Positions 1,769 through 33,686 of a stretch of 33,686 nucleotides of DNA are shown here, piece by piece (the stretch's first letter is position 1; each line of letters opens with the position of its first letter). The notes below the pieces were generated by a model. The model had not been told where the DNA came from. It saw only the letters and a list, made by a program, of their open reading frames with translations, and ran no database searches. A program made the translations under genes and the position numbers. The stretch is from contig CAINLR010000067.1 in NCBI GenBank assembly GCA_903850425.1, positions 1-33,686 on the forward strand, in the 5' to 3' direction. This DNA is from an uncultured Verrucomicrobia subdivision 3 bacterium (lineage in GTDB: Bacteria; Verrucomicrobiota; Verrucomicrobiia; Limisphaerales; UBA11358).

Positions 1769-4618
1769 TCACTGGCGCAAACGTTTAGCCTCTTGGAGGC
1801 AAGCCATCGCTTCGGATTGCTTGCCGATGGCGAGCAGGGCACAGCCTTTGTTGTTCCAAGCGCTGGCATCGCGTGGATCGAGGGCAATGGCCCGGTCAAA
1901 GCAGACGACAGCCTCCTGCCCGCGTTTCAAAGCAAGCAAAGCCGCGCCTTTGTTGCTCCAAATGATTGCGTTACCGACCGGGTTGAGGGCGAGACCCTTC
2001 TCGTAGCAGTTGATTGCCTCGGTGTTATTGCCTTCCTGCTGATACACTGAACCAAGCCGGAAATACCATTCAGCGTGCGCCGTTCGACAACGCGCCATGT
2101 GGCCGGCGGCGCTCGCGTCGCCCATCTTCTCCGCCTGTTGAAAGCAATCCATTGCGTCCCGGAAACGCTCCATTGAAAGGAGGGCAAGTCCTTTCAGAAT
2201 CCAGAGTGGGGGAAAATACGGATTGATCTCCAGCGCACGGTCGCAACATTTGACGACATCCTGATGACGCCCAAGGAACCCGATTGAGTGGCCCATGTTG
2301 AACCAAGCAGCCGCGTTTTTTGGATCGAGTCTGAGACCGGTCTCGTAACATGAAACCGCTTCTGCGTGCTTGCCCATTTTCGCCAAGCCTGCGCCTTTTG
2401 AAAAATACTCCTGTGCGCCATCCGCGTTTGCTGCCGACGCTCCAAGATGATCTCCGTCGGTTTTCAAAAGTCTCCGGCATTGCTCGACGGAACTGGCGGC
2501 CTCTGGGTGTCCGAGTTCTTGCGCTTGCTGAAAACAAACGAGTGCATCCTGATAACGCTCCTGTGCGGCGAACGCATTTGCTTTGTTGAACCATGTCTTT
2601 ACATCGTGCGGGTCAAGCGCCAGCGCCTTGTCGTAGGATGCAACCGCCTCGTCCAGCCTGCCGAGCGCTTTTAGTGCAACACCTCGGTTGCACCAAGATT
2701 TCATGTTCTTTGGATTAAGTGCGACGGCTCGGTTAAAGCACAGAAGCGCTTCTTCCAATTCTTTATTTTGCCAATGCTGGTGCGCTTTGTTGGTCCAGAT
2801 TTCCTCACAAGCTAATCTGCCTTCGACAGCCGGAAGTTTATTCAACTTGTCGCACGCTGCGATCGCTTCCTCATACCGCCCTTGGTCAACCAAAGTCTGC
2901 ACCAAGCAGACCAACGCCTTTTCGTCGGTTGAATCCCATTCGAGTGCCTCATTCAGCGCGTCTATTTGTCCGGCAATGTCTCCGGTTGCCAAGCGGCACT
3001 GGGCGAGAATGAGCCACGAATTGGCGTTCTCGGGGTTGAGCGCCAGCACTTGCTCAAAACATGGAATTGCTTCGGCGTAACGCTCCAAGGCTGCAAGGGC
3101 CACGGCTTTTCTGTCCAAAGCCACTATGAGTCGTGGATTGATGGCGAGTGCTCGTTCGAAACTCTCTAGCGCTTCGACATCCCGGTTCAGGCCAAGGAGT
3201 GAAAGTCCACGATTGTGCCACCCGTTTGCTAACCTGGGGTCAATCACCAAGGCTTGGTCGTAGCAATTCAACGCCTCCTCGTGACGCTCCAACTTGGTGA
3301 AAACGTTGCCTCGCCCTTGCCATGCCTCTGCATATTGGGGTTCGGAGGACAGGGCGCGATCGTAACACCGTAGGGCTTCCTGATGATTCCCGCGAACCAT
3401 CAATTCGCGGGCTTTGTTGTCGAGGGCCATGGCGAATCGTGGATTCTTGGCAATCGCTTGATCGTAGCAGCGAATCGCCTCATCGCCTCGGCCAAGAGCA
3501 CTGAGCGCGCTGCCTTTGTTGTTCCAGATTTGTGCAGCACTTGGATCAATTGCGAGAGCCGCGTCGTAACAACGAATCGCTTCATCATGTCGTCCAAGTG
3601 CGGCAAGCGATCCGCCCTTGTTATTCCAAAATGTCGCGGTCTTTTCTCCAACTCTTGGAATTTGGAATCTCCGTCCTGCCCTTTGCTCATAGAGCGGTTG
3701 CAAGTCATCGCGCAACTCTTGGAAGCTGCCGTAGCGATTCTGCGGGTTCGGATGCAGGCAACGATTGATTATTGATGCAATCGGTCCGTCCACCAAAGGG
3801 GCTCGCCCACACATCTGTTGTTCGCATGTGCCCTTTAGGTAAGCTTCGTAATCTCCTCGCCACGGCACTGCGAACGGTGGCGTTGGATTTCGCATGGCCA
3901 TTTGCCATAGCACCAACCCAAAGCTGTAGATATCGCTGCGAATACCTGCTCCATCTCGGCGATAAACTTCGGGGGGCATGTATCCTGGCGTGCCACACCT
4001 CGCCTTGCCTTCAGCTTCGACAAAGCTGAAATGAAAGCCGACGCCAGCGCCACCCGTTACAGCAGGATCGCCTTGCTTACTCGCGCCATGCCAGGCGGAC
4101 TGCGCGGCTAGTGCCAAGCCAAAGTCGCTAATTTTGAGTGTCCCATCTTGGGAAATCAGAATATTGCCGGGCTTGATGTCGCGATGGCATTTAATGCCGC
4201 GCGACTGCGCGTGTTCCATGCCGAGACAGAATTGGATTCCCCATTCCAGTGCTTGATTCGTGTCCAAGGAACGATCTGGCTGAACCAAATGGTCAGCCAA
4301 AGTCACCCGACCTTTTGAATCGGCGGCGATGTGTTCCATCAAAACGAACAAACGTCCCGAAACTTGTTCGACCCATTGCGCCGCCACGATGCAAGGATGT
4401 TTCTCCAAGTTTACCCACAGTAACGCCTCTTTCTTGAATGCATCTTGCGCTGCTAAATCGGCCATCCGCTCATCAAGAAAGGTCTTCATCGCGAACGCCT
4501 CGCCCGTATTGAGCATCCGAATCAGGTAAACGATGCCGAACCCGCCTTGCCCCAATACGCCATGGATTTCATACTTGCCGTTGAAGACATCGCCTTTCTT
4601 GTAGCGGCCTGCGTTCAT
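1769..4618 (-). CDS. Hanks-type Ser/Thr protein kinase fused to a long TPR array
   Basis: A 949-aa protein. Residues about 14-290 are a complete eukaryotic-like kinase: glycine loop GQGGFGIVY (23-31), ATP lysine K45, catalytic HRD with D147, DFG with D165, and GTPGYMPPE (209-217). An insert rich in Gly/Ala/Ser lies between DFG and the P+1 loop. From about residue 330 to the end there are at least 14 tetratricopeptide units, with the recurring pattern W-N-N-K-G-x-A-L-x-x-L-G-R-x-x-E-A. No membrane segment or PASTA domain is evident, so it is probably cytoplasmic, and the TPR array is likely a sensor or partner-binding surface. Its ATG overlaps the stop of the Clp gene by 4 nt, so the two are translationally coupled. 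Substrate unknown; phosphorylation of the Clp or PLD partner is a guess. Confidence 0.93.
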   Translation of the reverse strand: MNAGRYKKGDVFNGKYEIHGVLGQGGFGIVYLIRMLNTGEAFAMKTFLDERMADLAAQDAFKKEALLWVNLEKHPCIVAAQWVEQVSGRLFVLMEHIAADSKGRVTLADHLVQPDRSLDTNQALEWGIQFCLGMEHAQSRGIKCHRDIKPGNILISQDGTLKISDFGLALAAQSAWHGASKQGDPAVTGGAGVGFHFSFVEAEGKARCGTPGYMPPEVYRRDGAGIRSDIYSFGLVLWQMAMRNPTPPFAVPWRGDYEAYLKGTCEQQMCGRAPLVDGPIASIINRCLHPNPQNRYGSFQELRDDLQPLYEQRAGRRFQIPRVGEKTATFWNNKGGSLAALGRHDEAIRCYDAALAIDPSAAQIWNNKGSALSALGRGDEAIRCYDQAIAKNPRFAMALDNKARELMVRGNHQEALRCYDRALSSEPQYAEAWQGRGNVFTKLERHEEALNCYDQALVIDPRLANGWHNRGLSLLGLNRDVEALESFERALAINPRLIVALDRKAVALAALERYAEAIPCFEQVLALNPENANSWLILAQCRLATGDIAGQIDALNEALEWDSTDEKALVCLVQTLVDQGRYEEAIAACDKLNKLPAVEGRLACEEIWTNKAHQHWQNKELEEALLCFNRAVALNPKNMKSWCNRGVALKALGRLDEAVASYDKALALDPHDVKTWFNKANAFAAQERYQDALVCFQQAQELGHPEAASSVEQCRRLLKTDGDHLGASAANADGAQEYFSKGAGLAKMGKHAEAVSCYETGLRLDPKNAAAWFNMGHSIGFLGRHQDVVKCCDRALEINPYFPPLWILKGLALLSMERFRDAMDCFQQAEKMGDASAAGHMARCRTAHAEWYFRLGSVYQQEGNNTEAINCYEKGLALNPVGNAIIWSNKGAALLALKRGQEAVVCFDRAIALDPRDASAWNNKGCALLAIGKQSEAMACLQEAKRLRQ

Positions 4619-9438: not shown

Positions 9439-10968
9439 TCAAAATATCTCGGCCACGATTTTTGCGATCTGGTGGGCCAGCAATGGCGGCACGGCGTTGC
9501 CGACCTGGTGATACTGCGCGGTGCGCTCACCCTCAAAAAAATAATTGTCTGGAAATGTCTGCAACCTTGCCGCCTCCCGAACGGTCAGACTGCGGCATTG
9601 CGCCGGGTCGGGGTGGATGAAATAGTGGCCGTCCTTGGAGATGTGGGACGTGATTGTGGTGGCGGGACGGGAGGCCACCTGCACGCGGAACCGGTCGTTG
9701 AATTTGGTTTCTTTCAAAGCCGCCGCGACGTTCTCGTGATCCGGGAGCAATGCACTTGGAAAATCGTTGAGCAACGGCGAACGGCCATGAACCAACCCGA
9801 AAGCTGAAACAAAAAAGTAACGGTGTAGGTCCGCTCGAATGTGCGAGCGGGTGGCATGATTACAAACCCCTTTCAGCCGGCTATCCAGAAACCAATCTTT
9901 ATTCATCCGGATGCCCCGACGCGAAGGTCGAATCCATTCAGCTCCACGGTTCAACCCGTTCGTGACCATTTGAAGCTGAAAGCGAATTTCTCGACGCACC
10001 AGATCGTCCACTTTCAAGTCTTTCAACCATGCAGCTTTTCGGATTGAGCGGACAGCCTGATACCACTTGTCCGGTGAATCTGGTTCCTTTGACAACCCGC
10101 TGCGGAGCACGGGCAGATCGCTGATGGCTTCTGCAACGGAAACTTTTGGTTTTGGGACAAGCTGAGTCGGTGATGTGTTCACACCATCGGCGATGCCAAC
10201 GATGATCAAACGGTGGCGGGCTTGGGGTATCCCGTAGTTTTCTGCGTGGACGATGTAGGCACCAGGATCGGGGTCTGCAAAATCTTCCGACGGTGGGACT
10301 GACACCGAAACCAATCGGTAAGATAATTTTCCCCGACGATGATGCACGCCATAAATGGCCTCGAGTGGCTGCTGAAGGTCAGACAAGATGCGGCTGAAAA
10401 TCCCCTCGTTGTTTATTCTGGCGGAAAGCAACCCTTTCACGTTCTCCATGACGAACACGCGCGGGCGAAAATCTGCGATGATGCGAAGATATTCGCGATA
10501 CAGGAAATGCCGGTGATCTGCCTCATATTCCTTGCGGCCCCGCTCGCCGATGATCTTTGACCGGCCAACAAGCGAGTAGGCTTGGCAGGGCGGACCGCCG
10601 ATGAGAAGCCAATCATCCCGACCTCCCAAAGCGGCAGTGATGCAAGCATCGACTTTTGCCGGGTCCGTCACGCCGAGAGTGGCGTTCCAAGCCTCATTCC
10701 TAGCAGCCTTGGCTTCCTTGCCGTAGGCACTGAATAGGTCCTCGCGGGAAATTTTTTTATTGTCGAGATATTGGTAGTATTCTGGCGGAGCACCATTGGG
10801 AAATTGACGGTAGAAAGCGCGCAGTTCCAGTGTTTTATGGGCGACCGGGTCTTTTTCAATGGATACTCCGATTTTGAAAACGGGCCGGCCACCGCGCCGC
10901 AGCGCAGAAAACCCCTCGCCCAAGCCGCCTGGACCGGCAAAAAGATCAATGATGGGAATGGCTGACAT
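9439..10968 (-). CDS. C5-cytosine DNA methyltransferase (Dcm family)
   Basis: 509 aa. Motif I DLFAGPGG (8-15) binds AdoMet, motif IV GGPPCQAYS carries the nucleophile C128, motif VI is ENV (175-177), motif VIII is QARHRLIIVG, and motif X is YHQVGNAVPP near the end. A long inserted region between motifs I and IV (about residues 45-115) and the segment before motif X make it larger than minimal Dcm enzymes. The target-recognition domain gives no site by inspection. It starts 9 bp after the AIPR stop, so it is in the same operon. It likely protects host DNA from the nucleases in this cluster. Confidence 0.95.
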   Translation of the reverse strand: MSAIPIIDLFAGPGGLGEGFSALRRGGRPVFKIGVSIEKDPVAHKTLELRAFYRQFPNGAPPEYYQYLDNKKISREDLFSAYGKEAKAARNEAWNATLGVTDPAKVDACITAALGGRDDWLLIGGPPCQAYSLVGRSKIIGERGRKEYEADHRHFLYREYLRIIADFRPRVFVMENVKGLLSARINNEGIFSRILSDLQQPLEAIYGVHHRRGKLSYRLVSVSVPPSEDFADPDPGAYIVHAENYGIPQARHRLIIVGIADGVNTSPTQLVPKPKVSVAEAISDLPVLRSGLSKEPDSPDKWYQAVRSIRKAAWLKDLKVDDLVRREIRFQLQMVTNGLNRGAEWIRPSRRGIRMNKDWFLDSRLKGVCNHATRSHIRADLHRYFFVSAFGLVHGRSPLLNDFPSALLPDHENVAAALKETKFNDRFRVQVASRPATTITSHISKDGHYFIHPDPAQCRSLTVREAARLQTFPDNYFFEGERTAQYHQVGNAVPPLLAHQIAKIVAEIF

Positions 10969-10977
10969 GCGGGGGAT

Positions 10978-13083
10978 TTAACGTGTCAAAATGCCTGCTG
11001 ATCGGGCGGCTTCGATGATGGCGGCACCATGTTTGGCCTGCTTGGGTGATGGCATTCTTGTCCAGCCTTGAGCGGCATACCCAGCCAAGGTAGCCGCAAC
11101 ATTCATGGTCAGGTCTGAAAATTTACCCGACTGCCTGGCCCAATTAACGCCAGCCAACCAATTAGCAGCGTCCACTTCCAAGCAGCGTGCCACGTTATTG
11201 TGGTCGCGGGTGCTGAGTTCCTGACCATTACCGGAAGTCGCAGCATCCCTCAAAACACTGGCCGTTGTAGCCGATGACTGGCGCAATTCTTTTTCGCTCG
11301 CGTGGTTGATTTGGAGATCAAGAGAGAGCATGTGTTCCCATGTGGCCTGACTCTTCAGAATGTTGTCAATGTGGACTGTTTGCGATTGGGAGTAATCCAG
11401 CAACGCTTTGAAAATGACCGGCGACCAAAGGCTTGCCGTATTGGCAAGGGCGGGACTGATTGCCTGTCGTTTCCAAATGGCATCAAGATCAATCCGCCGG
11501 GCGGTTTTATCCGCCAGCAGCGAAACGGTGTAGTTGGTGACGTTAATCCGGTAAGCTGTGATGGACTCCTGGGCCTTCACGATGCGCTGGACATCGCGGA
11601 ATAAGATGGCCTTGCCAATATATTGTTTGAACTCCTCCGATGTTGGCATCCAGTTTTCAGGAAGTTCACCAAGTTCCTTCTTGATGAAAGTCATGAATTC
11701 CGTGAAGTTCTTCTGTCCGCCACGATTGACCACATAAGGCAGTCCGCGCCAGCAATTGACGAATTTTGCCAGGTCTTCCTTGCTAAAGCGCTGATGACTT
11801 GGAAATTCCCTGTCGAATTTCTTCTTAAGACCCTCGGTCGTTCCTTCCCGGTTTCTAGCGGTCTGGTAACTGCCGCGCGCTCGTTCATAGAACCACTTGC
11901 TTGTCTGGTCTGGAGTCCATTCACGTTTAGCCACGAGATCCAAACCGACGTGGAACCGATGGTTAGCCTGAAGATCGGTGTCTGTCACCTTGTTCTGACT
12001 GTTCGCGTAACGCGAGATTAACGGGACAACCTCGTTGAATCTGGTGGGATCCACGGTGACAATTTTACCCTGCACATAGACCTTTGAAAGATCCGCCTCA
12101 AATTCCTTGGCGGCACGATGGATTGAGGCAGTCGTCTGTCCACCGTTGACGATTTGCATCCCCTGCAACTCCAGGATTCCTCTTGTGCCATCCTTTAACT
12201 GGCCAAACACGATTTTCTCGGCAACAACGGTTATGCCATTATTATAGGCCATAAAATCCGCCGGGTCATTTCGCAGAGTATCCAAGATGCCCATGTTGAT
12301 CTTCCCTTTTGCCTGAAGGTAGGAACGGACGTTGAGCTCAAGCAATCGTGACCCGTGCTCGTCGTAGAGATCGCGAAGCAGTGAACCGGGGAAAATTGCC
12401 ACGCAAGTGCGATACCCTTCGTCCCCGGCGTCAAGCCGAACACATGGCAATCCACCATCGGGTTGTGTCCGCAAGTCAACAGTCAGCGCTTCGTAACCTG
12501 CGCCACTTTCCCGAAGTCGTCGAAATCGTTCAATGTCCCATACTTCATAGGCGGCGGGAACTCCTTGAATCTCGGCCTTGCGCTGCTTTTCCCGTCTCAC
12601 CGCCAAGCGACTGTTGGTGAACAGAAAAAAATTAACCCGGTCAAATTTCCCCTGAAGCTGCTGGATTCGCTCCGCCATGTAACGCTCGGGCAGCGCCGGT
12701 TCAAGTTCCTCATGCAGCCCATCCAAAGCCCGTCCGAGAAAACGTTCAAGTTTGTTGAACGACGTATCAATTTCCGATGCGTTTAGGGTTGGAACTTCAG
12801 AGTGTGGTCCGGCGTTGTAAATCGTAAGAAAAAGGTCGAGTCGGCTATCTTCGTCTGGCACCCCATAGCCGCTTACTTTGAAGGCCGCAGTAGATTTTCC
12901 ATGCTCACAATGGCAGACGACCGGCGACTCAAGAACGCCAGCGGCGTCCAATTCATCGGCGAGCATCCGGCTGAAGGCGAGTTCGCGGAAATCAGCCGGA
13001 TTGCCGGCATTCGGCTGCACATCGGCAGTGATGTCGTTTTCAATCTCGTTCAGGAACGTGAGGAGTTCGGATGGGTCAGGCAT
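10978..13083 (-). CDS. AIPR family protein (abortive-infection/phage-resistance domain)
   Basis: 701 aa from the ATG at 13083 (MPDPSELLTF), which overlaps the previous stop by 8 nt; longer starts would run deep into that gene. The AIPR signature is plain in the middle: NVRSYLQAKGKINMGILDTL, FMAYNNGITVVAEKI and LQGMQIVNGGQTTASI. AIPR proteins were first linked to phage abortive infection and are common in Z1/DUF4420 clusters. Their biochemical activity is not settled from sequence alone. The C-terminal 250 residues are helical and unassigned. Part of the seven-gene operon. Confidence 0.93.
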   Translation of the reverse strand: MPDPSELLTFLNEIENDITADVQPNAGNPADFRELAFSRMLADELDAAGVLESPVVCHCEHGKSTAAFKVSGYGVPDEDSRLDLFLTIYNAGPHSEVPTLNASEIDTSFNKLERFLGRALDGLHEELEPALPERYMAERIQQLQGKFDRVNFFLFTNSRLAVRREKQRKAEIQGVPAAYEVWDIERFRRLRESGAGYEALTVDLRTQPDGGLPCVRLDAGDEGYRTCVAIFPGSLLRDLYDEHGSRLLELNVRSYLQAKGKINMGILDTLRNDPADFMAYNNGITVVAEKIVFGQLKDGTRGILELQGMQIVNGGQTTASIHRAAKEFEADLSKVYVQGKIVTVDPTRFNEVVPLISRYANSQNKVTDTDLQANHRFHVGLDLVAKREWTPDQTSKWFYERARGSYQTARNREGTTEGLKKKFDREFPSHQRFSKEDLAKFVNCWRGLPYVVNRGGQKNFTEFMTFIKKELGELPENWMPTSEEFKQYIGKAILFRDVQRIVKAQESITAYRINVTNYTVSLLADKTARRIDLDAIWKRQAISPALANTASLWSPVIFKALLDYSQSQTVHIDNILKSQATWEHMLSLDLQINHASEKELRQSSATTASVLRDAATSGNGQELSTRDHNNVARCLEVDAANWLAGVNWARQSGKFSDLTMNVAATLAGYAAQGWTRMPSPKQAKHGAAIIEAARSAGILTR

Positions 13084-14098
13084 AGGAGGAAATGATGCGG
13101 GGCCAGAAATCAGGTTCCAGGATATGGAAAGGGGCTGCCGCTGAGAGATTAAGGATGTAGGAAACTTCCGACACTCCCGATGGCAGGCTTGATTCAAGGA
13201 GACGAGGAAATCCATCGCCAACATTATACGCGTCGAAGTGGCGGGGGGTGAATCCCCAGATGTCAAACTCGTTTGGCACGCCTTCCACGAATCCAGCTTC
13301 CAACAACCGGTCGTTGAAAACTGATAGCGCGTCGGGTGAATTTGCGGCGAGCGCCGTTTTCAAGGACGTGACGAGCTGCGGTAGCGTCCTGCCGCTTCCC
13401 TGGCGAAAATCAAACGCGTAGCGAGTCAGAAACAAACTCTGGAGGCCGGTGGAATCCAACTGGCGTGCATTGGTGATTCGGACTTTGTCCAGTTCATTAC
13501 CGGTGGTCGTCTTAACCTCCACTGCCAGCGGCCCGAAAAGAAAATCCTGATTTGTTCCGAGTGGACCCTGCCACGCGCTTACAATGGGCAGACTAGCGGC
13601 ACCCGCTTTTATTGACGCCTCGATGAAGGAGAGTTCGCCATACAAACCAACATAATCCTCACGGCTCAAACCAAACTGTGCCCCCCGCTGAAAGAATTTT
13701 TTCCAGCGCGCAAGCCGGCGGCTCAATGATTTGAGAGAATCGGAAGCGCCCGCATGTGGAATCCAATGCTCCAAAATATCCGAGCAAAAAATCGTGAATA
13801 TCTCCCGATAGCCCGCGCTCGTTTCCTGAATCCGAATCGTGGCCCGGTCAGTCCGTCCGGCTTCGTCCGGGCCAACGTCAATTGAATAGCCCTTGGTTTC
13901 ATCCGCTAAGCGGAGTCCGCGAGTTGAACCGAGATCGGTTTCAAGAATGAGAATACGCGCATCCGTTGGACGGTGAATGCCAGCGTGCGCGGGCCACATG
14001 CATGTCAGCGGGATGCGGCGGTGGTAGTAGCCATCGGCTTGCGACGCCTCGGTAACGACGGTGCCCCATGTCTGAGTGAGTATTTCAGAGACTGTCAT
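13076..14098 (-). CDS. PD-(D/E)XK motif protein (DUF4420)
   Basis: 340 aa. The conserved core LYGELSFIE (E155), NQDFLF (D185) and AVEVKTT (E194, K196) is the restriction-endonuclease-like fold with all acidic and Lys residues in place. DUF4420 proteins are the nuclease partners that travel with Z1 and AIPR proteins. It overlaps the Z1 stop by 14 nt and the AIPR start by 8 nt, so the three are translationally coupled. Likely role: cutting DNA brought by the Z1 motor. Confidence 0.92.
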   Translation of the reverse strand: MTVSEILTQTWGTVVTEASQADGYYHRRIPLTCMWPAHAGIHRPTDARILILETDLGSTRGLRLADETKGYSIDVGPDEAGRTDRATIRIQETSAGYREIFTIFCSDILEHWIPHAGASDSLKSLSRRLARWKKFFQRGAQFGLSREDYVGLYGELSFIEASIKAGAASLPIVSAWQGPLGTNQDFLFGPLAVEVKTTTGNELDKVRITNARQLDSTGLQSLFLTRYAFDFRQGSGRTLPQLVTSLKTALAANSPDALSVFNDRLLEAGFVEGVPNEFDIWGFTPRHFDAYNVGDGFPRLLESSLPSGVSEVSYILNLSAAAPFHILEPDFWPRIISSYA

Positions 14099-16931
14099 TG
14101 TCGCCGCCCCTAGTGGTGAATACGTTGTTGACTGTATAGGTCACTTCCGTCGCCGTATCGCTCTTGGGAAAACTTATTGCCAACCCTATTACCGGGGGAC
14201 TGCCTTCCGGCAAGCCCGCGTGTTGTGGGTCCAGGGGATAGATCAGTAACATGCCCCGTTTCTTGGGCCGTGACTGGCGGATATCCTTGCCGCCCGGTGC
14301 TGTTGGCGGTTCTTTTGCCTTTGATGGGCGCTTGTCTATATGCCAATTAGCCACCGCCAGCGCGACCGCGAACGCCATTTCTTCATCCGAAAGGTCAATT
14401 TGCTCGTCGGTGGGGCTGACTAGACGCCGGATTGTGTATCGATCATTCCTCTGTTCTTCCGGGAATGGGGCACGTCGGACCAAGCCAACGTCAAGGCCAC
14501 GAATGTTTTTCTGACCAGCTTCGGCCAAGCCCGAGGAAACAAGGCGAATGGTCCAATCTATCAGTTCGTCGTTTTTGGTTTGAGCCTTGATGTAACGAGC
14601 GAGCAGTTCTGTGTCAGCTCTTCGGGCATCTTCGTGTGACTTATATCTACCCAACAGATCAAGAACGGCGGGAGCAGCTATGTGCCAAGTATAACCACCG
14701 GCCTTGCTTCCGGCCGCGTCACATGGGCCGAGTGATGCGAGCCATGATTCAATCGCACCGAAGTTCGACGCGAGCCATTTGGGGTCGCGTTTGAATATGA
14801 TGGTTTCACTGATATCGCCGGAGAATGAGAGGCGCATTTCCGTGCCGTTACGCATTTTCACCGCCGATGTGACGAGCATCGCGGAATGAGACCGGACTTT
14901 TAGTCCGTAATCCTTTGGCGTTGCGCCGACATTGACCATGTGCTGAAACTCACTCTGGAGTTCTTCGCTCGCGGCGGCGATGTGGGTAAACCACTCAAGT
15001 AATTCTGCGGTCGTGTAGAGGCGGCAAACATCGATGTATTTTTCCTTGTAACCGAACCAGCGACCCATCTGCATGAGCGTGTCATACATCCGGGAAGCTC
15101 GGAGAAAGTATGAAACTGAAAGTCCCTCCAGTGTCAGTCCGCGCGAAAGTTTGTCGCCGCCGACGGCAATCAAGTCCATGCCGGTTTCCCGGTGCTCTTC
15201 ATAGTCGAGGATGTCGCCCGCGCTGCCGTTTATGATTTTGATACGGATTCCTGATGCGACGCCCTCCAATTTTGGGTGAATTGTTTCCCATTCCGGCAGG
15301 ACTAGGTGGGAGCCTTTAAGAATGTCAGCACACCTGTTCGACGTTGGCACGAAGTCGCGCCGCCACAAATCTGCAAACTCATCAATGATTGTGGGTTTAC
15401 GGTCGCCGTCACCATTTCTCAGACGTTGGTGAATCTCCCTGAGCGCAATTTCAACCTGGGCTGCCACCTCCTTCTGTATCTTGGTGAAGCGAACAACATG
15501 GACGAGCATGGAGTTAAACAACGCGCCTTTTTCCCGCTGCTTGCGAACCGCAGTTGCCAGAAGAAATGCCATGATCGCTTCGCGCAGTGATGGTGGGACC
15601 GCACGGCTCCCATTAAATCGTGGAATGTGGTTGGTTTTTGCTTCCAGTTTTGGCGGCATCCAACCTGATGTTTCGTCAACATTGTCGGAATTGGCATGGT
15701 CACTGACAGGGCGAACAATTGGCAGGGGTGAAACTTCACCCAACCCTGCATCCTCGTCTTCTTGCAGACCAAAGATTCTAGCTGGCCCCATGTAGTTGCT
15801 GGGTGGCGGGATGTTGACGATGAAACTGCGCGGAAAAAGATCATCCCCCAACTCTCGAGTGGAACCCTTTTCATGGATATAGATATTCGCAAATGGCGTG
15901 GCGGTGTAGCCAACGTAGGCAACTTTCTCGAACGCGCGAAGTAGTAGTCGAATGTTCCGATTTGTCTTGGTTGGATCGTGGTCTTCGTCAGGTTTTCCAT
16001 CCTCATCAAATTCTTGTTGCCGAGTGTCAACGGAAGCCAAGTCGGCTTCGTCATCAATGATGAGCGCCGGCACATTGCGCACAAACTTCCGGCCTGTGGC
16101 TTCGTCCTGTGCGTCCGCGCAAGAACGAATCCATTTGATGAGATTATTCAATACGCTGACGTTTTTCTTAACCACAAAAACCAGCGGCAGGCCGCCGGGA
16201 TGAATGCCAAATTGCTTGGCAACTTTTTCATTAAAATCGCCAAGCTGGGTCCGGTTCGTGCCTGTGTTTGCACGGATTGAAGCGTCAATCATACCGACGC
16301 CAACTGGCTTGAAAGTCTGCTGGCCATCACCAAGCACGTCGTTCATGAAGCCCAAGAATCCTTCGTCCAAGCGGATTTGCGTCTGACTTCTCAGACTGTT
16401 GTGAACACCGGACAAAACGATAATTACCTTGTAGCCAGCATCAGCGGCTTTGCAGACGAGGCCGCAATAATTCGCAGTCTTGCCGGATTGCACATGCCCC
16501 ATCACCAAACCGCGCCGGTCCCATGATCCTTGGCGCTGGGGATCTTCAATCCTTTCGAGGACATCGCTTGTGACCTTATCCACGCTATCAACCGCCGATC
16601 GTGGGACTCGCTCTTCCAGATAAAGAAGGTAACGATCCCAATAGCGCCAAGCAATTGTGGTGCGACGTGCCGGCAACCATGCTTTGTGGTCGTCGTTGTT
16701 GCCAAGTGTCTGGTGTTCACCTGTAACGACGGTGAACCTTTCCTCCAGCTCGGCGGCTAATCTTTCTTTGTCGAGTCCCGCAAATGATGGCATCGCCAAA
16801 ACTTCGTTCACCACTTCAAGAATATCCGCTGTCTTCAGAAAACGTCCGGCGGTGGCCGCCCGTTGCTTCAGCATCATCTGGCACATCGCCAGCACCGTGG
16901 CGAATGTGGCGTTTGAAAGATTAGAGCTCAT
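14085..16931 (-). CDS. Z1-domain superfamily II helicase-like ATPase
   Basis: 948 aa. Walker A is GHVQSGKT (145-152), in the characteristic 'MGHVQSGKTANYCGL' context of Z1 proteins. A DEAD-like ALIIDDEADLAS, the motif YVGYTATPFANIY, and the C-terminal motor motifs GGDKLSRGLTLEGL and LMQMGRWFGYK (arginine finger region) follow in order. This is a complete two-lobed motor, expected to translocate on DNA and power the DUF4420 and Vsr-type nucleases. It overlaps the GHKL ATPase stop by 11 nt and the DUF4420 start by 14 nt. Confidence 0.95.
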   Translation of the reverse strand: MSSNLSNATFATVLAMCQMMLKQRAATAGRFLKTADILEVVNEVLAMPSFAGLDKERLAAELEERFTVVTGEHQTLGNNDDHKAWLPARRTTIAWRYWDRYLLYLEERVPRSAVDSVDKVTSDVLERIEDPQRQGSWDRRGLVMGHVQSGKTANYCGLVCKAADAGYKVIIVLSGVHNSLRSQTQIRLDEGFLGFMNDVLGDGQQTFKPVGVGMIDASIRANTGTNRTQLGDFNEKVAKQFGIHPGGLPLVFVVKKNVSVLNNLIKWIRSCADAQDEATGRKFVRNVPALIIDDEADLASVDTRQQEFDEDGKPDEDHDPTKTNRNIRLLLRAFEKVAYVGYTATPFANIYIHEKGSTRELGDDLFPRSFIVNIPPPSNYMGPARIFGLQEDEDAGLGEVSPLPIVRPVSDHANSDNVDETSGWMPPKLEAKTNHIPRFNGSRAVPPSLREAIMAFLLATAVRKQREKGALFNSMLVHVVRFTKIQKEVAAQVEIALREIHQRLRNGDGDRKPTIIDEFADLWRRDFVPTSNRCADILKGSHLVLPEWETIHPKLEGVASGIRIKIINGSAGDILDYEEHRETGMDLIAVGGDKLSRGLTLEGLSVSYFLRASRMYDTLMQMGRWFGYKEKYIDVCRLYTTAELLEWFTHIAAASEELQSEFQHMVNVGATPKDYGLKVRSHSAMLVTSAVKMRNGTEMRLSFSGDISETIIFKRDPKWLASNFGAIESWLASLGPCDAAGSKAGGYTWHIAAPAVLDLLGRYKSHEDARRADTELLARYIKAQTKNDELIDWTIRLVSSGLAEAGQKNIRGLDVGLVRRAPFPEEQRNDRYTIRRLVSPTDEQIDLSDEEMAFAVALAVANWHIDKRPSKAKEPPTAPGGKDIRQSRPKKRGMLLIYPLDPQHAGLPEGSPPVIGLAISFPKSDTATEVTYTVNNVFTTRGGDNDSL

Positions 16932-28141: not shown

Positions 28142-28190
28142 TCACTGCCATAGGATTGACGGTTAACGAAAATTGAACATGGAGAAAATT

Positions 28191-28799
28191 ATGACGAACA
28201 CACTGGAACAAAAAGACCGGGCCGGTCAGGCCCCAACCGCGCTGGCCTTTGAGCAGCAAAACCGGGAGAGCAGCAAAGCATTTGCGGCTTTCAAAACCTA
28301 TCTCGACCTGGGGCCGAACCGGTCGCTGGTGTCCGCTGCGACGAAGTTGGGCTGCAGCAAGCGGCGGCTGGAATGGCTCAGCCGGAAATATGACTGGCCT
28401 GCACGGGTGGTCGCTTTCAACCGGCATTTTGCCGAGTTGGAGCGACAGGCGATTGAACGGCTGGCGTGTGAAAAAGCCGTCGAGTGGTGGCAGCTTCACG
28501 AACCAGCCCGCCGTCAGGCGTGGCTGGAGGCCGAGGAAGCCATCACGATGGTGCGCGAGGCGCGGGAGCGCTGGCGCAAGTCGGGTCGGACGGTGGGCTT
28601 TGAAGGCATGGCGCGGATGCTGGATCTGGCGTTCAAGCTAAAACAATTCGCCGCCGGTATGCCCAGCGAGATCAAGGAGGTTCACAACTTGCACGCCGGT
28701 AAGGTTTCGATCGAATGGGAGGAAGCCATCCGCAAAGCGTATGCGGTGGCTGAACCGACTGCCCCGGCCATCGTGGATGTTCAGGAGGTGAAGCCATGA
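28191..28799 (+). CDS. Phage terminase small subunit
   Basis: 202 aa from ATG 28191, which has GGAG 6 nt upstream; an ATG at 28179 is possible. An N-terminal helix-turn-helix (SLVSAATKLGCSKRRLEWLSRKYDWPARV) is given here by its core LGCSKRRLEWLS. A long helical, probably oligomerising middle follows (residues about 80-150). This is the plan of DNA-recognising TerS proteins. It overlaps the large subunit by 4 nt, the strongest support. TerS should recognise the packaging site, perhaps the hairpins just upstream. Confidence 0.85.
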   Translation: MTNTLEQKDRAGQAPTALAFEQQNRESSKAFAAFKTYLDLGPNRSLVSAATKLGCSKRRLEWLSRKYDWPARVVAFNRHFAELERQAIERLACEKAVEWWQLHEPARRQAWLEAEEAITMVREARERWRKSGRTVGFEGMARMLDLAFKLKQFAAGMPSEIKEVHNLHAGKVSIEWEEAIRKAYAVAEPTAPAIVDVQEVKP

Positions 28800-30178
28800 A
28801 CGCTTACGACATTCTGGCCAAGGCGGCGGTAGCCGCCGGCTGTCCGATGGATCAGACATTCAACCTGGTGAAAGGCGAAGCCTGTTTGCAGGAACGGCAA
28901 CTGCTGGCCTGCGCGGCTGCGCGCCTGTGCGACCAGCCGAACGGTCCGACCGCCGTGGGTTACGGCGGCGCGCGCGGCGGTGGCAAGAGTCATTGGTTGC
29001 TGGCGCAAATGGGGGTGGACGATTGCCAGCGCGTGGCTGGATTGAAATGCCTGCTGCTCCGCAAGGTCGGCAAAGCGAACCTGGAGCACTTCGAGGATCT
29101 TCGGCGCAAGCTGTTCAACCGTCTGCCGCACGAGTTCTCAGCTTTCCGTGGCATTCTTACGTTTGCCAACGGGTCCCGCATCATCGCCGGTCACTTCCAG
29201 AACGAGAAAGATATTGATGCTTACCTCGGGCTCGAATACGACGTCATCGGCATCGAGGAGGCTACCACCCTCACCAGCCGGAAATACCAGGACATCACGA
29301 CGTGCTGCCGCAGTTCAAAACCGAACTGGCGTCCCCGGATTTATTCCACGACCAATCCGGGGGGAGTCGGTCACGCCTGGTATCGCACGAAGTTTGTGGC
29401 GCCGATGTTGGAACGGCGCGAGACCGACACGCGGTTTATCCCGGCGCGCGTCACGGACAACCGCTGGAATAATCCGGATTATGTCCGTGTGCTCGAAGGT
29501 TTGACCGGCTGGCAAAAGCGGGCTTGGCTCGACGGTGATTGGGATATTGCCGCCGGCCAATATTTCACCAACTTCCGCCGCGAAATTCACGTTCTGAGCG
29601 ACTTCGACGATGCTCGTGGCGTGGAATGGTTCGCCGCCCTGGACTATGGTTTCGCGCATTACACCGTGGCGCTGCTTGGTTGCCGCGACGGCGATGGCAA
29701 CATCTTCATCGTGGACGAACACGCGGAGCGGCTTTGGCTCCCGCAGCGCCATGCCGCCGGCATCCGGGCGATGCTCGCCCGGCATGGTCTGGAGCCTGAG
29801 CGTCTTCGCCGCTTCTCTGCCGGCGCGGATGTGTTCTCCCGTCAGGGCGATGGTTCCACCGTCGCCAGTCAGTATGAACGGCTGGGGATCCGGCTGAAAC
29901 CGGCCAGCATGGACCGCATCAATGGGTGGCCAGAACTGATGCAAGGCTTCGGTGATCCAGAAAATGGTGTAAAACCGACATTATTCATTCACCAGCGGTG
30001 CAAACGGCTGGTGGAAACGATTCCGACGCTGCAACACGACCCGAACCGGCCTGAAGATGTGCTGAAAGTGGATGCTGATGACGATGGTGTCGGCGGCGAC
30101 GATGCCGCCGATTGTCTGCGGTATCTGGTGGCGACGAAAATCCGCACGGTGACGCAATGCAAGTTGCGGGGGTTCTGA
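28796..30178 (+). CDS. Phage terminase large subunit
   Basis: 460 aa packaging motor. The ATPase domain has Walker A GGARGGGKS (57-65), Walker B VIGIEEAT (150-157) and the coupling motif YSTTNPGG (183-190). The C-terminal RNase-H-like nuclease has acidic residues D283 in ALDYGF, D345 in GADVFSR and the cluster around D435-D439 in GGDDAAD. All are intact, so the enzyme may be functional. It would translocate and cut DNA into a prohead. It is the last gene of the module: no portal follows. Confidence 0.93.
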   Translation: MNAYDILAKAAVAAGCPMDQTFNLVKGEACLQERQLLACAAARLCDQPNGPTAVGYGGARGGGKSHWLLAQMGVDDCQRVAGLKCLLLRKVGKANLEHFEDLRRKLFNRLPHEFSAFRGILTFANGSRIIAGHFQNEKDIDAYLGLEYDVIGIEEATTLTSRKYQDITTCCRSSKPNWRPRIYSTTNPGGVGHAWYRTKFVAPMLERRETDTRFIPARVTDNRWNNPDYVRVLEGLTGWQKRAWLDGDWDIAAGQYFTNFRREIHVLSDFDDARGVEWFAALDYGFAHYTVALLGCRDGDGNIFIVDEHAERLWLPQRHAAGIRAMLARHGLEPERLRRFSAGADVFSRQGDGSTVASQYERLGIRLKPASMDRINGWPELMQGFGDPENGVKPTLFIHQRCKRLVETIPTLQHDPNRPEDVLKVDADDDGVGGDDAADCLRYLVATKIRTVTQCKLRGF

Positions 30179-30251
30179 CGACGGGACAGTTTTCACTCTA
30201 AAAGCGACGGTGTGGTTACGCGGTCGGCTGCCGCAACACATGGGGGCATGG

Positions 30252-30609
30252 TGATAGCTGTCCGGCGCATGAGGACAGAAGCCGTCCGAAGGACAAAAGC
30301 GAGTCGGCGAGCGTGCGGTGGCTGGCGTGAGACAGCCACAAAAGCGGCCGGTGGCCGCGTGAGTGGAACACAAGAGCGCGTCTTTCGCGCGTGCGTCCGA
30401 GCTATCAGCGAGGACAGAAGCGGAGCGTGGTGCGCAGTCCCCCCTTGGGGACGGAAGGGGGGACGAGCATCGGGGGGATGGGCGGGGGCCTGGGGAAAGA
30501 CGCCCCGACCAAACTTCCAAAACAGCGGAGCGGCGACGTTGGCGTGAAGGATGCCTGCAAACTGGCGCGATGACTGCCCGCACGAATGCGAGGTGCGGAT
30601 TAGCAGTCA
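30252..30609 (+). ncRNA. Candidate structured RNA: multi-helix domain after the terminase
   Basis: The 8-mer TGATAGCT (30252-30259) is complementary to AGCTATCA (30400-30407). The enclosed 140 nt hold a row of perfect hairpins: GTCC/GGAC (30284/30291), GTGGCTG/CAGCCAC (30318/30333), GCGGCC/GGCCGC (30344/30353) and GCGCG/CGCGC (30376/30386). Further stems follow: GTCCCCCCTT/AAGGGGGGAC (30437/30455), with a competing GTCCCC/GGGGAC, and a two-part stem TGACTGC+CCGCAC with GTGCGG+GCAGTCA (30571-30609). No open frame here looks like protein. The strand is assumed from the flanking operon. Confidence 0.4.
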
Positions 30610-30627
30610 GCGTGACAGTGCGGCAGC

Positions 30628-30748
30628 GGGATTGTCACACAACGCCATATTGTGCGTCATTTACTTCCAGCACAGGGTCTCGGGGTTCCCTGTGCGCCCG
30701 GAATAAATGACCGAAGGGTCACGCACAATATGTGTTGTGTAATGTCCC
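30628..30748. repeat. 121-nt imperfect palindrome / giant hairpin
   Basis: Reading inward, the paired blocks are GGGA/TCCC, ACACAAC/GTTGTGT, a perfect 12-bp CATATTGTGCGT/ACGCACAATATG (30646-30657 with 30721-30732), CATTTA/TAAATG, TTCC/GGAA and apical GCACAGGG/CCCTGTGC with a 10-nt loop. One side carries an extra small hairpin ACC-GAAG-GGT (30710-30719). About 41 of 60 positions pair in register. It could be a folded RNA, a single-strand DNA recombination or replication site, or a palindromic MITE. Confidence 0.65.
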
Positions 30749-31520
30749 GGAAGCATCCTGCATGACAATGGAGCCGCGAAGCTCGCGATATTTTGTCGGG
30801 GCGTCTGGACTCGTTGCCTATCTTTTCCGGCGTCCAGGCGAATCAGCGGAGCGGAATGACGGGCGTTTTTGGGGTGGCAGGGCAAAATGCCAACGGCAGG
30901 CCGTGAAGCGATTCGACTGGTGGCCGGACTGACTAATTCGGGGCGACAAGTCCGGCGGTTTTTCGTAGCGGTGAACGAAGTGGCCGCGAAGAAAAGGCCG
31001 CCGGTCTTGGAGCATAATGCTGACGCCTTGCACCGGGCGCAGCCTCGCGGTGCTTTCGTCTTCGGCGACAGGCAACGCCTCGCGCCGTATTGCTGTTCCT
31101 GGCCGGACGAAGTCGCGCGGCCATTTTTGTTCTGAGCCGCCTCGCGCTCGCGGCTGTTGCACATCAGGCGAACCCCGACGCAGGAGGGGTTCGCCGCCGC
31201 GAGCCGCGCAGCGGCGAGGTCTTTGCAGCTTGTCACCTTTGGGCGCGGCCGGTTTCATCCGGTCTCGCCAGTTTTCGACCGTCGGAACGAAACGATAGCG
31301 TCCGCGCAGCGGTTCGCGGCAGTGAAGTGGAGCGGTCGGAAAGCTGGCGAGTCCGGCCAGGCCGCGGGCGGAAGCGTGCCGAGCCAGATCGAGCGACGGG
31401 CGGAGTTTGCGCAGTCCCTGAGCGAAAAGATGGCGAGGCTCGCTGACGCCGGGGTGCGTGCCGAACTGGCCATCATTGGGTGGAGCGATAGCGACAGGGA
31501 ATCAATCCACTAACTTTTCT
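30749..31520. other. Gene-free, hairpin-rich interval
   Basis: No convincing gene. Notable structures are CGCGA/TCGCG (30775-30787), CTGGAC/GTCCAG (30805/30832), CCGGCGG/CCGCCGG (30952/30998), AGCCGC/GCGGCT (31135/31150) and a perfect 10-bp GGCGAACCCC/GGGGTTCGCC (31167/31186). A plus-strand frame ending at 31513 has a protein-like tail (SQIERRAEFAQSLSEKMARL...IGWSDSD) and may be the 3' remnant of a decayed phage gene. Confidence 0.4.
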
Positions 31521-31614
31521 TGCCGACCCCGCGCCAAAATCATCCGCCAACCTGAACGGTCGGCAGGAACGAAAACCGTTCGATAACCTGCGACGTCCAT
31601 GGCGCGCGCGGGGT
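31521..31614. repeat. Nested inverted repeats downstream of the IS110 transposase
   Basis: ACCCCGCGC (31526-31534) is complementary to GCGCGGGGT (31606-31614). Inside, GAACGGT (31554-31560) pairs with ACCGTTC (31575-31581), and TGCCGACC (31521) with GGTCGGCA (31558) as an alternative. The position 20-110 bp beyond the transposase stop suggests the right end of the IS or the sequence it jumped into. Confidence 0.4.
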
Positions 31615-31635
31615 AGTTGTTCTCTGTTTTGTAAA

Positions 31636-32922
31636 TTAGTTTTTTTCTGATTTATTCACCACCTTTTTTTGGGTGACTTTGACCGTTTGCAAGGTCAGCA
31701 CCCACGACCCATGCTTGAGTTGGTTTTGTTGATGCAGCTCGGCATCGTAGGGGCGGTGTGTGGACTGCATCTTCCAGATGATTTTCAGCCAGCGTTGCGC
31801 CAAACACCGTAGCGCACAGGCGTGGCTTTTGCCTTCGGCACGCTTGTGCTGATAGTAGATGGACGCCCAGCCACATTTCCGTCGGCTGTTGTTCGTCCAC
31901 AAGTGCAGGACGCACCGCAGGTGTTTGTCGCAGTGGCGCCGGATTTTGGTCCGGTGGATCTGGCCGGACTGGTAGCTGACCGGCGCGGTGCCCGCGATGG
32001 CTTGCAAGGCTGCGGGATCGGAAAAACGTTCCGGATTGAGTGACAGTTCGGCCAACAGCCGTGGTGCCAGCAATGGCCCCGCCCCTGGCAAGGATTCAAA
32101 CAACGGATAGTTGGCGTGCTGACGATAGAGCGCCTGGATTTGCTCATGATAGTGATCGATCTGGAGCTGCAAAGTTTTGAGCAGGTGGGCCAGACTGAGG
32201 GCGAGCTGACTTTTGGCCGCGGTGACAGGAGCGCGACCACAGAACTGGTCGGCGCGGGCAAACACTTCCAAACGAGGCCCGGCAGTTTCCGGTCGCCAGA
32301 GCCGGTGCGTATGCAGGAACTTTTCCCACCGCCGCTTCCCCGCCGCAACCAGTTGTTGCGGCGTGGGGAATTGGAGGATGAAATCCCAGGCGGCGGGCAG
32401 GGTCAACCGGTCAAACGCCTCCACCGCTGCGGGATAGTATTCTTTGAGGGTCGCTTCGAGTTGGTTGACCAACAGGGTGCGCTGTTGGATGAGGCGCACT
32501 TCGTCGCGGCACAACAACCGGAGTTGCTCGGCCTGCGGATCGTTGGGGGCGATGGCTTTCCAGTCCTGCCCCTCGGTGCGCAGGGCGGCGGCAAGCGCCC
32601 ACGCATCAATGGCGTCCGTCTTGCACCCGCTGGGAGCCTTGCGTTTGCGGTAGCTGGCGGCACTGATGGGATGGACGGGATAAACCGTGCAGCCGCTGGT
32701 GACCAACTGGTCAATGACCAGTCCATGGCGGGTTTCGACGGCGAAGGCCAGGCTGGGATAAGCCTGAATGCGTTCGCGGAACTGTTCCCAGCCAGCTTGT
32801 GAGTGCGCGATGCGGAAGTCGGTCACGATCGCGCCTTCGGCATCGATGATCACGATGTCGTGATGGTCGTCGGCCCAATCAAAGCCGGCGAAGTGAGTCG
32901 TTGCGGACCAGTTGTTTTTCAT
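31636..32922 (-). CDS. IS110-family transposase (DEDD/serine recombinase)
   Basis: 428 aa from ATG 32922, with AGGAG 6 nt upstream; the open frame to 33141 is non-coding IS sequence. The N-terminal RuvC-like domain has the full DEDD set: D15 in GFDWADDHHD, E63 in AVETRHG, D103 and D106 in KTDAIDAW. A coiled middle region follows, then the C-terminal Tnp domain with LFESLPGAGPLLAPRLLAEL and GTAPVSYQSGQ, where S318 is the likely nucleophile. Both domains are intact, so it may be active. IS110 enzymes are guided by a bridge RNA that pairs with donor and target DNA. Confidence 0.95.
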   Translation of the reverse strand: MKNNWSATTHFAGFDWADDHHDIVIIDAEGAIVTDFRIAHSQAGWEQFRERIQAYPSLAFAVETRHGLVIDQLVTSGCTVYPVHPISAASYRKRKAPSGCKTDAIDAWALAAALRTEGQDWKAIAPNDPQAEQLRLLCRDEVRLIQQRTLLVNQLEATLKEYYPAAVEAFDRLTLPAAWDFILQFPTPQQLVAAGKRRWEKFLHTHRLWRPETAGPRLEVFARADQFCGRAPVTAAKSQLALSLAHLLKTLQLQIDHYHEQIQALYRQHANYPLFESLPGAGPLLAPRLLAELSLNPERFSDPAALQAIAGTAPVSYQSGQIHRTKIRRHCDKHLRCVLHLWTNNSRRKCGWASIYYQHKRAEGKSHACALRCLAQRWLKIIWKMQSTHRPYDAELHQQNQLKHGSWVLTLQTVKVTQKKVVNKSEKN

Positions 32923-33120
32923 AGTTGCTCCTTTCGTTTGGCGCATCGCGTTCCTGTCACCAGTCAAGCTGATACAAGGAGCCTCATGGGCAATTGTTCT
33001 CTCAGACTTTTGGACAGGCGCTGCCCGGCGGACCGGTGAACTACAGCAGGTCTTCGCGAGACTAGCGAAAGGCAACCGTGTTCCGCCGGGGAGCGATGCG
33101 ATGGGAGATATTATTCCCAC

Positions 33121-33135
33121 CGCAAAAGTTTTGCG
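33121..33135. promoter_or_regulatory. 15-bp palindrome in the IS110 leader
   Basis: CGCAAAA-G-TTTTGCG is a perfect 7+1+7 palindrome between the candidate bridge RNA and the transposase start. It may be a protein-binding site or the end of the RNA. Confidence 0.3.
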
Positions 33136-33144
33136 CGGCACAGT

Positions 33145-33299
33145 TATTCACCGGTGGCTGCGGGGAGTTCGTGCGCTCTCCTCGCCACCGGTGAATATCT
33201 GTGGAGAACGTATCAGCGAAAGGCCAGCCGTGACTGATCATCGTAAACCGATGATGGCTGGCCGGTGCTGGCCTGTGGGATAAAGGGTTTACAGGCCAG
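33145..33299 (-). ncRNA. Candidate IS110 bridge RNA
   Basis: Read on the minus strand, three hairpins follow in order upstream of the transposase. (A) CTGGCCTGT/ACAGGCCAG with a 14-nt loop (33299-33268). (B) GGCCAGCC/GGCTGGCC enclosing ATCATCG/CGATGAT, with a 7-nt one-sided bulge (33263-33222). (C) a 14-bp stem TATTCACCGGTGGC/GCCACCGGTGAATA enclosing an internal loop and GGAG/CTCC (33197-33145). One 5' stem-loop followed by two large looped stems, about 155 nt in all and on the transposase strand, is the layout known for IS110 bridge RNAs. Guide pairing could not be proven by eye. Confidence 0.55.
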
Positions 33300-33342
33300 T
33301 CATGAGCGCCGGCGTCCGCGCGCGGGAAATGATCATCGTAAA
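33235..33342. repeat. 13-bp direct repeat linking hairpin B to the outer IS region
   Basis: TGATCATCGTAAA occurs at 33235-33247, inside hairpin B, and at 33330-33342, outside all three hairpins. In IS110 elements part of the guide loop matches DNA at the element end, so the outer copy may mark the left end. Confidence 0.55.
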
Positions 33343-33376
33343 TGGAAACCGTGAATTTGCCGCGCGATTCGTCCTG

Positions 33377-33422
33377 TTGAGCAAAGCGAACTAATTTCCT
33401 ATTGAGCAGGGCGAACTAATTT
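33377..33422. repeat. Two near-identical 21-bp direct repeats
   Basis: TTGAGCAAAGCGAACTAATT at 33377 and TTGAGCAGGGCGAACTAATT at 33402 differ at 2 positions and repeat with a 25-bp period; both end in a further T. Tandem terminal repeats of this kind are seen at the ends of IS21-like elements, where they bind the transposase. No such transposase is inside the window. Confidence 0.6.
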
Positions 33423-33659
33423 TGCGTTTCGAGCGCAATCGAATTACCGCCAGCATCCGCATTGTCCACGGCACACGACTTCACCTGGTTGCATGTGGCA
33501 CGAATGGCAAACACCGCACAAATGATCAAAACGCGGGCAAATTACCGGGCCAGGCCGGAAACAGACGCTAAAACAGCGAATTGACTGGTAATGATTTTTC
33601 TGGCAAACCGCCTGAAAATAATGAATTTTGTGAGCCGGTAACGAATTTAATTTTTGACA
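33423..33659. other. Non-coding interval near the right edge
   Basis: I see no convincing gene. The sequence is A/T-richer than the rest of the window, and the short frames on both strands are not protein-like. Confidence 0.4.
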
Positions 33660-33686
33660 ATGGCGACTCAACCTGATCCAAGTGAC
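33660..33686 (+). CDS. Possible start of a gene cut by the right edge
   Basis: ATG 33660 opens MATQPDPSD to the window edge. The codons look plausible, but there is no ribosome site, and nine residues cannot be identified. Confidence 0.15.

What the first reader, a model, noticed from the sequence alone, without database searches (positions are those of the whole stretch)
30252..30609. Multi-helix non-coding domain after the terminase
An 8-bp long-range pairing encloses a row of perfect hairpins, with further strong stems and one competing pair (GTCCCC/GGGGAC against GTCCCCCCTT/AAGGGGGGAC). No protein explains it. It may be a large ornate phage RNA comparable in style to other prophage-borne large RNAs, but not one I recognise.
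Basis: partly seen in the sequence, partly recalled or inferred. Interest (0 to 1): 0.7.

Follow-up and report, generated by a model that had tools for sequence, protein, structure and literature searches.

The report
Giant structured RNA in Verrucomicrobial phages

Summary
Window 30252-30609 is the 5' part of a larger noncoding element, about 30179-31616 plus 33214-33540, split by an IS110 insertion. Homologues of its 3' domain occur in 37 of 320 genomes of the order (14 of 118 genera) and in 8 distinct IMG/VR viral contigs. No Rfam family matches. Structure is strongly supported: 27 of 35 pairs of the 3' domain show two-sided changes and 96.5% of cells pair; three further long-range helices covary. 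Domain I folds 9.7 SD below shuffles here and 12.8 SD in another phage copy. No reading frame is conserved. The usual phage order is TerS-TerL-(minus-strand genes)-RNA-portal-capsid, TerL and portal never on the opposite strand. Best reading: a new class of giant phage RNA acting in trans like GOLLD/ROOL. Function is inferred. Transcription and termini are untested.

The parts
28173..28799 (+). terminase small subunit (TerS), context
   Evidence: phrog_6299 E 7.4e-15
28796..30178 (+). terminase large subunit (TerL), directly upstream of the RNA
   Evidence: Terminase_6N, phrog_979
   Evidence: homologues of this stretch found in L084 (same contig as L048), L098 and L033 only, among the loci compared; fold z -1.02
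   Evidence: kept with wobbles in L084 and L098, lost in L033 (by eye); weak
30437..30464 (+). conserved C-rich/G-rich hairpin, loop GGGGAYGG, arms 30437-30446 and 30455-30464
   Evidence: 97.4% paired in 27 sequences
30498..30806 (+). domain I, closed by helix Z 30498-30509/30795-30806; inner arms 30571-30577/30603-30609, 30627-30631/30745-30749, 30637-30644/30733-30740, 30646-30655/30723-30732
   Evidence: z -9.68; covariation
30826..30928 (+). second structured arm: 30826-30831/30923-30928, 30833-30837/30917-30921, 30851-30854/30901-30904
30946..31010 (+). stem 30946-30950/31006-31010
31058..31125 (+). highly conserved module C hairpins, incl. 31101-31105/31118-31122
31245..31365 (+). module E stem 31245-31249/31361-31365, with inverted repeat 31259-31276/31339-31356
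31520..31614 (+). module G: strand Y 31520-31527, strand X 31526-31534 pairing with 31606-31614; entry strand of the 3' domain
   Evidence: X and Y covary in 41 homologous copies; the window itself was not in that set
31617..33213 (-). IS110 element inserted in the RNA gene (ends approximate); transposase ORF 31636-33141
   Evidence: DEDD_Tnp_IS110 and Transposase_20; homologues run from G to H without it
33214..33540 (+). 3' domain H on the far side of IS110: hairpins 33222-33229/33256-33263 and 33268-33276/33291-33299; helix-1 3' strand near 33316-33324
   Evidence: cmsearch R1 33198-33328, 61.7 bits, E 2.7e-13; blast of H to 33502; 3' limit inferred from conservation

Best explanation
It is one copy, broken by IS110, of an undescribed class of giant structured RNA carried by phages, prophages and phage remnants of one order of Verrucomicrobiota (probably Limisphaerales; inferred from titles of close TerL relatives). 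Shown: a modular, largely collinear, noncoding element, by conservation about 1.4 to 2.3 kb in most intact copies, with many compensatory base changes, a pseudoknotted 3' domain, and a usual place between TerL and portal on the late-gene strand. Inferred: it is transcribed with the phage late genes as one RNA, folds by itself, and acts in trans as a structural or scaffolding RNA in the lytic phase, most likely in head assembly or DNA packaging, in the manner proposed for GOLLD and ROOL. The identity as a structured RNA class I hold at about 0.95, the trans-acting scaffold role at about 0.5.
For: Covariation: 27 of 35 pairs two-sided, 395 cells against 112.6 shuffled, in 90 distinct sequences (on an alignment fitted to the model; 16 of 35 in the unfitted alignment of 25); helices X and Y beat 500 of 500 permutations each (18 and 23 distinct strand pairs); helix Z beats 1000 of 1000 (31 rows). 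Folding z -9.68 in the window and -12.77 in L089. No conserved frame. Synteny: of 22 contigs with both TerL and portal, 18 have RNA blocks between them, 2 weak pieces, 2 none; of 93 R1 hits TerL lies upstream on the same strand in 29 and opposite in 0, portal downstream on the same strand in 46 and opposite in 0. Trans action: in L101, L106 and L289 a copy ends facing minus-strand genes; short P-C-G-H forms keep the block order.
Against: No transcript data. No sigma-70-like promoter in L089; terminator-like sites not above shuffles. G-U over A-C excess favours the plus strand in the 3' domain (83 against 21, alignment fitted to the plus-strand model) but not in Watson-Crick-selected stems of the whole alignment (46 against 47). 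Permutation controls ignore relatedness. No convincing helix joins domain I to the 3' domain; one search lists only short candidates (mostly 5 bp, at most two covarying pairs), so one molecule is inferred from constant order. 33 of 93 R1 hits, and 12 of 33 with at least 5 kb on both sides, show none of the head/packaging markers used. In L049 a plus-strand ORF follows the upstream copy, and plus-strand frames overlap the minus-strand genes in L101 and L106, so convergence rests on judgement by eye. No partner protein is known.
Confidence: 0.6

Rival explanations
1. It is a packaging-motor RNA or packaging signal: the RNA (like phi29 pRNA) or its DNA binds TerS/TerL or portal and is needed to start or drive packaging.
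For: Usual place between terminase and portal; copies also in loci with primase-like genes, one with an integrase, and no relative of this TerL found, as a satellite would need (L049, L033).
Against: Far larger than needed; many copies per genome (15 R1 matches in the own genome); no match to any Rfam family.
Confidence: 0.2
2. It is a very long cis-acting leader that controls the portal/capsid operon, for example by antitermination.
For: 46 of 93 R1 hits have portal downstream on the same strand, 200 to 2,887 bases away.
Against: Copies after TerL that end facing minus-strand genes (L101, L106) and a like copy in L289 (partly by eye); hits without portal nearby, though contig ends explain some; size and pseudoknots exceed known leaders (recalled).
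Confidence: 0.12
3. It is a DNA-level element: hairpins used in recombination, as a mobile module or as an insertion target.
For: Paralogous pairs flank minus-strand genes and appear to recombine (L045 carries helix-Z halves that do not pair; the window's 3' part is 86% like a downstream-type copy and at most 73% like upstream-type copies); IS110 sits in it in the window and in L090.
Against: Many compensatory changes including a pseudoknot; constant orientation relative to TerL and portal; deeper plus-strand folding.
Confidence: 0.08

Closest known systems
GOLLD RNA
   Same: Large structured noncoding RNA of phages and prophages; conserved 3' region and less conserved 5' region (PMC12286853, section 7 read).
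   Different: No Rfam match; about 1.4-2.3 kb by conservation, while GOLLD is given as 'many members exceeding 800 nucleotides'; not near tRNAs (1 tRNA in 27 loci; none in the window); lies between terminase and portal.
ROOL RNA
   Same: Large prophage/phage RNA of unknown function (PMC12286853, passages read).
   Different: No Rfam match; larger (ROOL size recalled); no tRNA island; seen in one Verrucomicrobiota order in the genome draws searched.
phi29 packaging RNA (pRNA)
   Same: Phage RNA with a packaging context (recalled).
   Different: Much larger (pRNA size recalled); no Rfam match.
OLE RNA
   Same: Large ornate bacterial RNA (abstract of PMC12054373 seen in the listing: about 600 nt).
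   Different: Phage rather than host context; no Rfam match.

Membership tests
GOLLD | match to the Rfam covariance model | tested here: not met
   no GOLLD hit at gathering score over the window, at E up to 5 over 30150-33686 or at E up to 1 over the L089 copy
GOLLD | phage or prophage encoded | tested here: met
GOLLD | often near tRNA islands | tested here: not met
   1 tRNA in 27 loci, 0 in the window
GOLLD | conserved 3' and variable 5' region | tested here: met
GOLLD | homo-oligomeric nanocage | not testable with these tools
   needs cryo-EM
ROOL | match to the Rfam covariance model | tested here: not met
Group I/II intron | match to Rfam intron models | tested here: not met
   no hit to any family at gathering and no intron family among relaxed hits; that Rfam holds these models is recalled
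phi29 pRNA | match to the Rfam model | tested here: not met
   that Rfam holds this model is recalled
phi29 pRNA | binds portal and drives packaging | not testable with these tools
   needs biochemistry

The most novel reading that the evidence does not exclude
A new class of RNA, among the largest structured bacterial noncoding RNAs outside rRNA, that self-assembles into a particle and takes part in phage head assembly or packaging; some phages carry two paralogous copies, and terminase-less elements carry it to use a helper phage.
Probability: 0.2. Interest if true: 0.95.

Novelty: new variant of a known kind. Interest (0 to 1): 0.8.

Why it matters
Few very large structured phage RNAs are known, and for GOLLD and ROOL no function is established (PMC12286853, passages and sections read). 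This one appears bigger, sits in an informative place in the head and packaging gene cluster, and comes in tens of divergent natural copies. That makes structure determination and tests of what giant phage RNAs do directly possible.

Tried and rejected
Known RNA families: no Rfam match at gathering in the window, none credible at relaxed E. Protein coding: rejected. Phage records: no blastn match, so homologues came from whole genomes, GTDB contigs and IMG/VR. tRNA island link: not seen. Promoter scan of L089: 0 sites; terminator-like sites 2 against 2.6 in shuffles. Strand from G-U excess: inconclusive overall. In the stem scans the null that pairs like bases is inflated by repeats and gave 27 and 6 stems with at least two covarying pairs, against 29 and 14 for the true rule; the other two nulls gave 0 and 1 and 0 and 0. 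With at least three covarying pairs it was 16 true against 6 and 8 against 2. So stem counts alone were not relied on. Spread beyond the order: two phylum draws (387 genomes each) matched only the own genome and one of its genus; a class draw (384) matched 9, all of the order. These used stricter filters that lose weak matches. Literature: searches listed no paper that appeared to describe this RNA; I read only passages of PMC12286853 and PMC8040213 and two sections of the former. bioRxiv and most subscription papers are not in the library.

Rows dropped or chosen before counts: 2 of 40 rows by a length filter (L058, L101). Of 33 hairpin matches, 27 went into A4; left out were four that are not this RNA by eye, one near duplicate (L196) and one that looks like a truncated copy whose outer pairs do not form (L013), so A4 leans slightly towards the helix. 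A2 used 25 copies and A5 41 of the 93 R1 hits, both chosen by hand. One search lost 2 of 24 rows of one type (L063, L173) and 3 of 12 named rows of the other (L043, L101, L102); of its 31 rows six pair over 6 bases or fewer (L045 counted twice, L100, L192, L199, L099). The 93 R1 hits include loci fetched through TerL (L092, L188, L196 among the sources), which may favour the synteny count a little.

Full report
What was checked. Rfam gave nothing in the window and nothing credible at relaxed E. A DNA search of the own genome with 30180-31640 returned 20 matches, the window itself included, on several contigs; of 59 genomes (own included) 22 had matches.

Anatomy. Forty neighbourhoods were fetched and compared. 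The matches fall in largely collinear blocks, which I call P-A-B-C-D-E-F-G-H. In the window A-G run from 30432 to 31616; H resumes at about 33213, after an IS110 transposase gene (31636-33141). Homologues run from G to H without a break, so IS110 interrupts the element. A short form with P, C, H and usually G (about 500-700 bases) exists at several loci (L039, L040, L042, L048, L049). Extent is judged from conservation, not from transcript ends: the stretches aligned, flanks included, were 1,450-2,898 bases, one of 24 above 2.3 kb; from the helix-Z start to the last conserved columns L089 spans about 1.4 kb. The window's part beyond IS110 is 86% identical over 289 bases to the downstream copy in L049, and at most 73% to five upstream-type copies; the window ends in the start of an ORF (MATQPDPSD) like the Fic gene after that L049 copy. 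I infer that the window copy is a hybrid of two paralogues joined at IS110.

Structure. A covariance model of the 3' domain (R1; 25 sequences, 16 of 35 pairs with two-sided changes) finds the window's 33198-33328 at 61.7 bits, E 2.7e-13, well below the 100-157 bits of many other copies. Over 93 matches in 87 sources searched, 27 of 35 pairs have two-sided changes, 96.5% of cells pair, and the covariation score is 0.340, against 0.097 in shuffles and at most 0.068 when the partner is slid; this alignment was fitted to the model. Two further helices tie module G to H: X (ACCCCGCGC/GCGCGGGGT and variants) and Y (CGCCTGAC/GTCAGGCG and variants). Own-partner pairing was 8.67 against 6.39 permuted for X and 7.43 against 5.79 for Y, each above 500 of 500 permutations. 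Y crosses the helix that closes H, so the domain is pseudoknotted; X shares up to five bases with that helix, so parts of the two may exclude each other. Helix Z (30498-30509/30795-30806) closes domain I, with very different sequences in different copies; own pairing 9.87 against 6.93 permuted, 0 of 1000, although 6 of 31 rows pair over 6 bases or fewer. These permutations do not allow for relatedness. In window coordinates 14 stems with at least two covarying pairs were found in 38 sequences, against 0, 0 and 6 under three false pairing rules; in 24 loci of the other type 29 against 0, 1 and 27. The rule with 6 and 27 pairs like bases and is inflated by repeats. Domain I folds with z -9.68 in the window (minus strand -7.83) and -12.77 in L089. 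The remainder 30807-31616 has z -2.41 (20 shuffles).

The C-rich/G-rich hairpin is conserved in its long form. The 8-bp pair and the hairpin row before 30437 belong to a variable insert found, among the loci compared, in L084 (same contig as L048), L098 and L033; the pair survives in two of these three (by eye), and the stretch folds like shuffled sequence (z -1.02).

Noncoding. None of 18 stop-to-stop frames of at least 60 codons in 30179-31616 aligns over 80% of its length without a stop in more than 5 of 37 homologues.

Context. The usual phage order is TerS, TerL, two minus-strand genes (mn, a DUF6573 protein, and mk, no family), RNA, portal (phrog_145), capsid (phrog_247). Of the 63 loci scanned, 22 distinct contigs carry both TerL and portal; 18 have RNA blocks between them, L194 and L195 have only weak pieces, L108 and L197 none. 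Of 93 R1 hits, 60 show upstream TerL/mn/mk or downstream portal/capsid. With at least 5 kb on both sides it is 21 of 33; the other 12 include copies near integrases and copies upstream of mn/mk. TerL and portal were never on the opposite strand. Some loci carry two copies, before and after the minus-strand genes or in tandem. After the upstream-type copy the genes that look real by eye are on the minus strand in L101, L106 and L289, but a plus-strand ORF of 180 residues follows in L049.

Distribution. R1 matched 22 of 49 genomes of the genus, 37 of 320 of the order in 14 of 118 genera, 2 of 387 in a phylum draw, both of the own genus (the same with R2), and R2 matched 9 of 384 in a class draw, all of the order. 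A TerL search of GTDB genomes found close relatives titled Verrucomicrobia, many of them subdivision 3, and some titled Limisphaerales; that the order is Limisphaerales is my inference. R1 was in 12 of these 52 TerL loci and in 0 of the 16 distant ones from Clostridia and relatives or Proteobacteria (L120-L135). In IMG/VR it was in 12 of 90 loci, 8 distinct contigs; 15 of the 90 had been fetched by an RNA pattern (6 confirmed) and 75 by TerL.

How it most likely works. A long plus-strand RNA folds into several domains with a conserved pseudoknotted 3' core and swappable 5' modules, is made with the late genes, and acts in trans as a structural RNA. Shown: conservation, structure, place, orientation. 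Inferred: transcription, single molecule, trans action, link to head assembly. Copies whose 3' ends face minus-strand genes speak against a leader role, with the L049 caveat. GOLLD is the nearest working analogue by size class, phage location and the conserved 3'/variable 5' layout (PMC12286853: sections 7 and 9 and found passages read), but it is not the same family.

Novelty. No match in Rfam and no description noticed in the paper searches made. I rate it a new class within the known but small kind of giant phage RNAs.

Noticed in passing
window 32920-33215, minus strand: Noncoding end of the IS110 element folds with z -6.6; by position it may hold the bridge RNA of the IS110 family (recalled).
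   Followed up: partly
L090 3414-4814: A second IS110 relative lies between two pieces of module C in another copy of the RNA: the RNA gene may be a recurrent IS110 target.
   Followed up: partly
L084, L107, L088, L049, L289: Two paralogous RNA copies or 3' domains in one locus, in some cases flanking the minus-strand mn/mk genes; L045 mixes helix-Z halves that do not pair, suggesting recombination between paralogues.
   Followed up: partly
L049, L033: RNA copies in loci with primase-like (DUF3854) genes, and in L049 an integrase, with no relative of this TerL detected: possible satellites or remnants.
   Followed up: partly
L047 3797-8490 (coordinates on the reverse complement of the locus): RNA copies downstream of a gene that reads like purL (by eye) and around a Fic-domain gene, away from the phage genes searched for.
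   Followed up: no
L119: A TerL relative (54% identity) in a genome labelled Planctomycetota; no R1 match there.
   Followed up: no
window 9439-16931, minus strand: C-5 cytosine methylase and a Z1-domain protein, possibly a restriction or defence cluster.
   Followed up: no
window 1769-4618, minus strand: Protein kinase with many TPR repeats.
   Followed up: no
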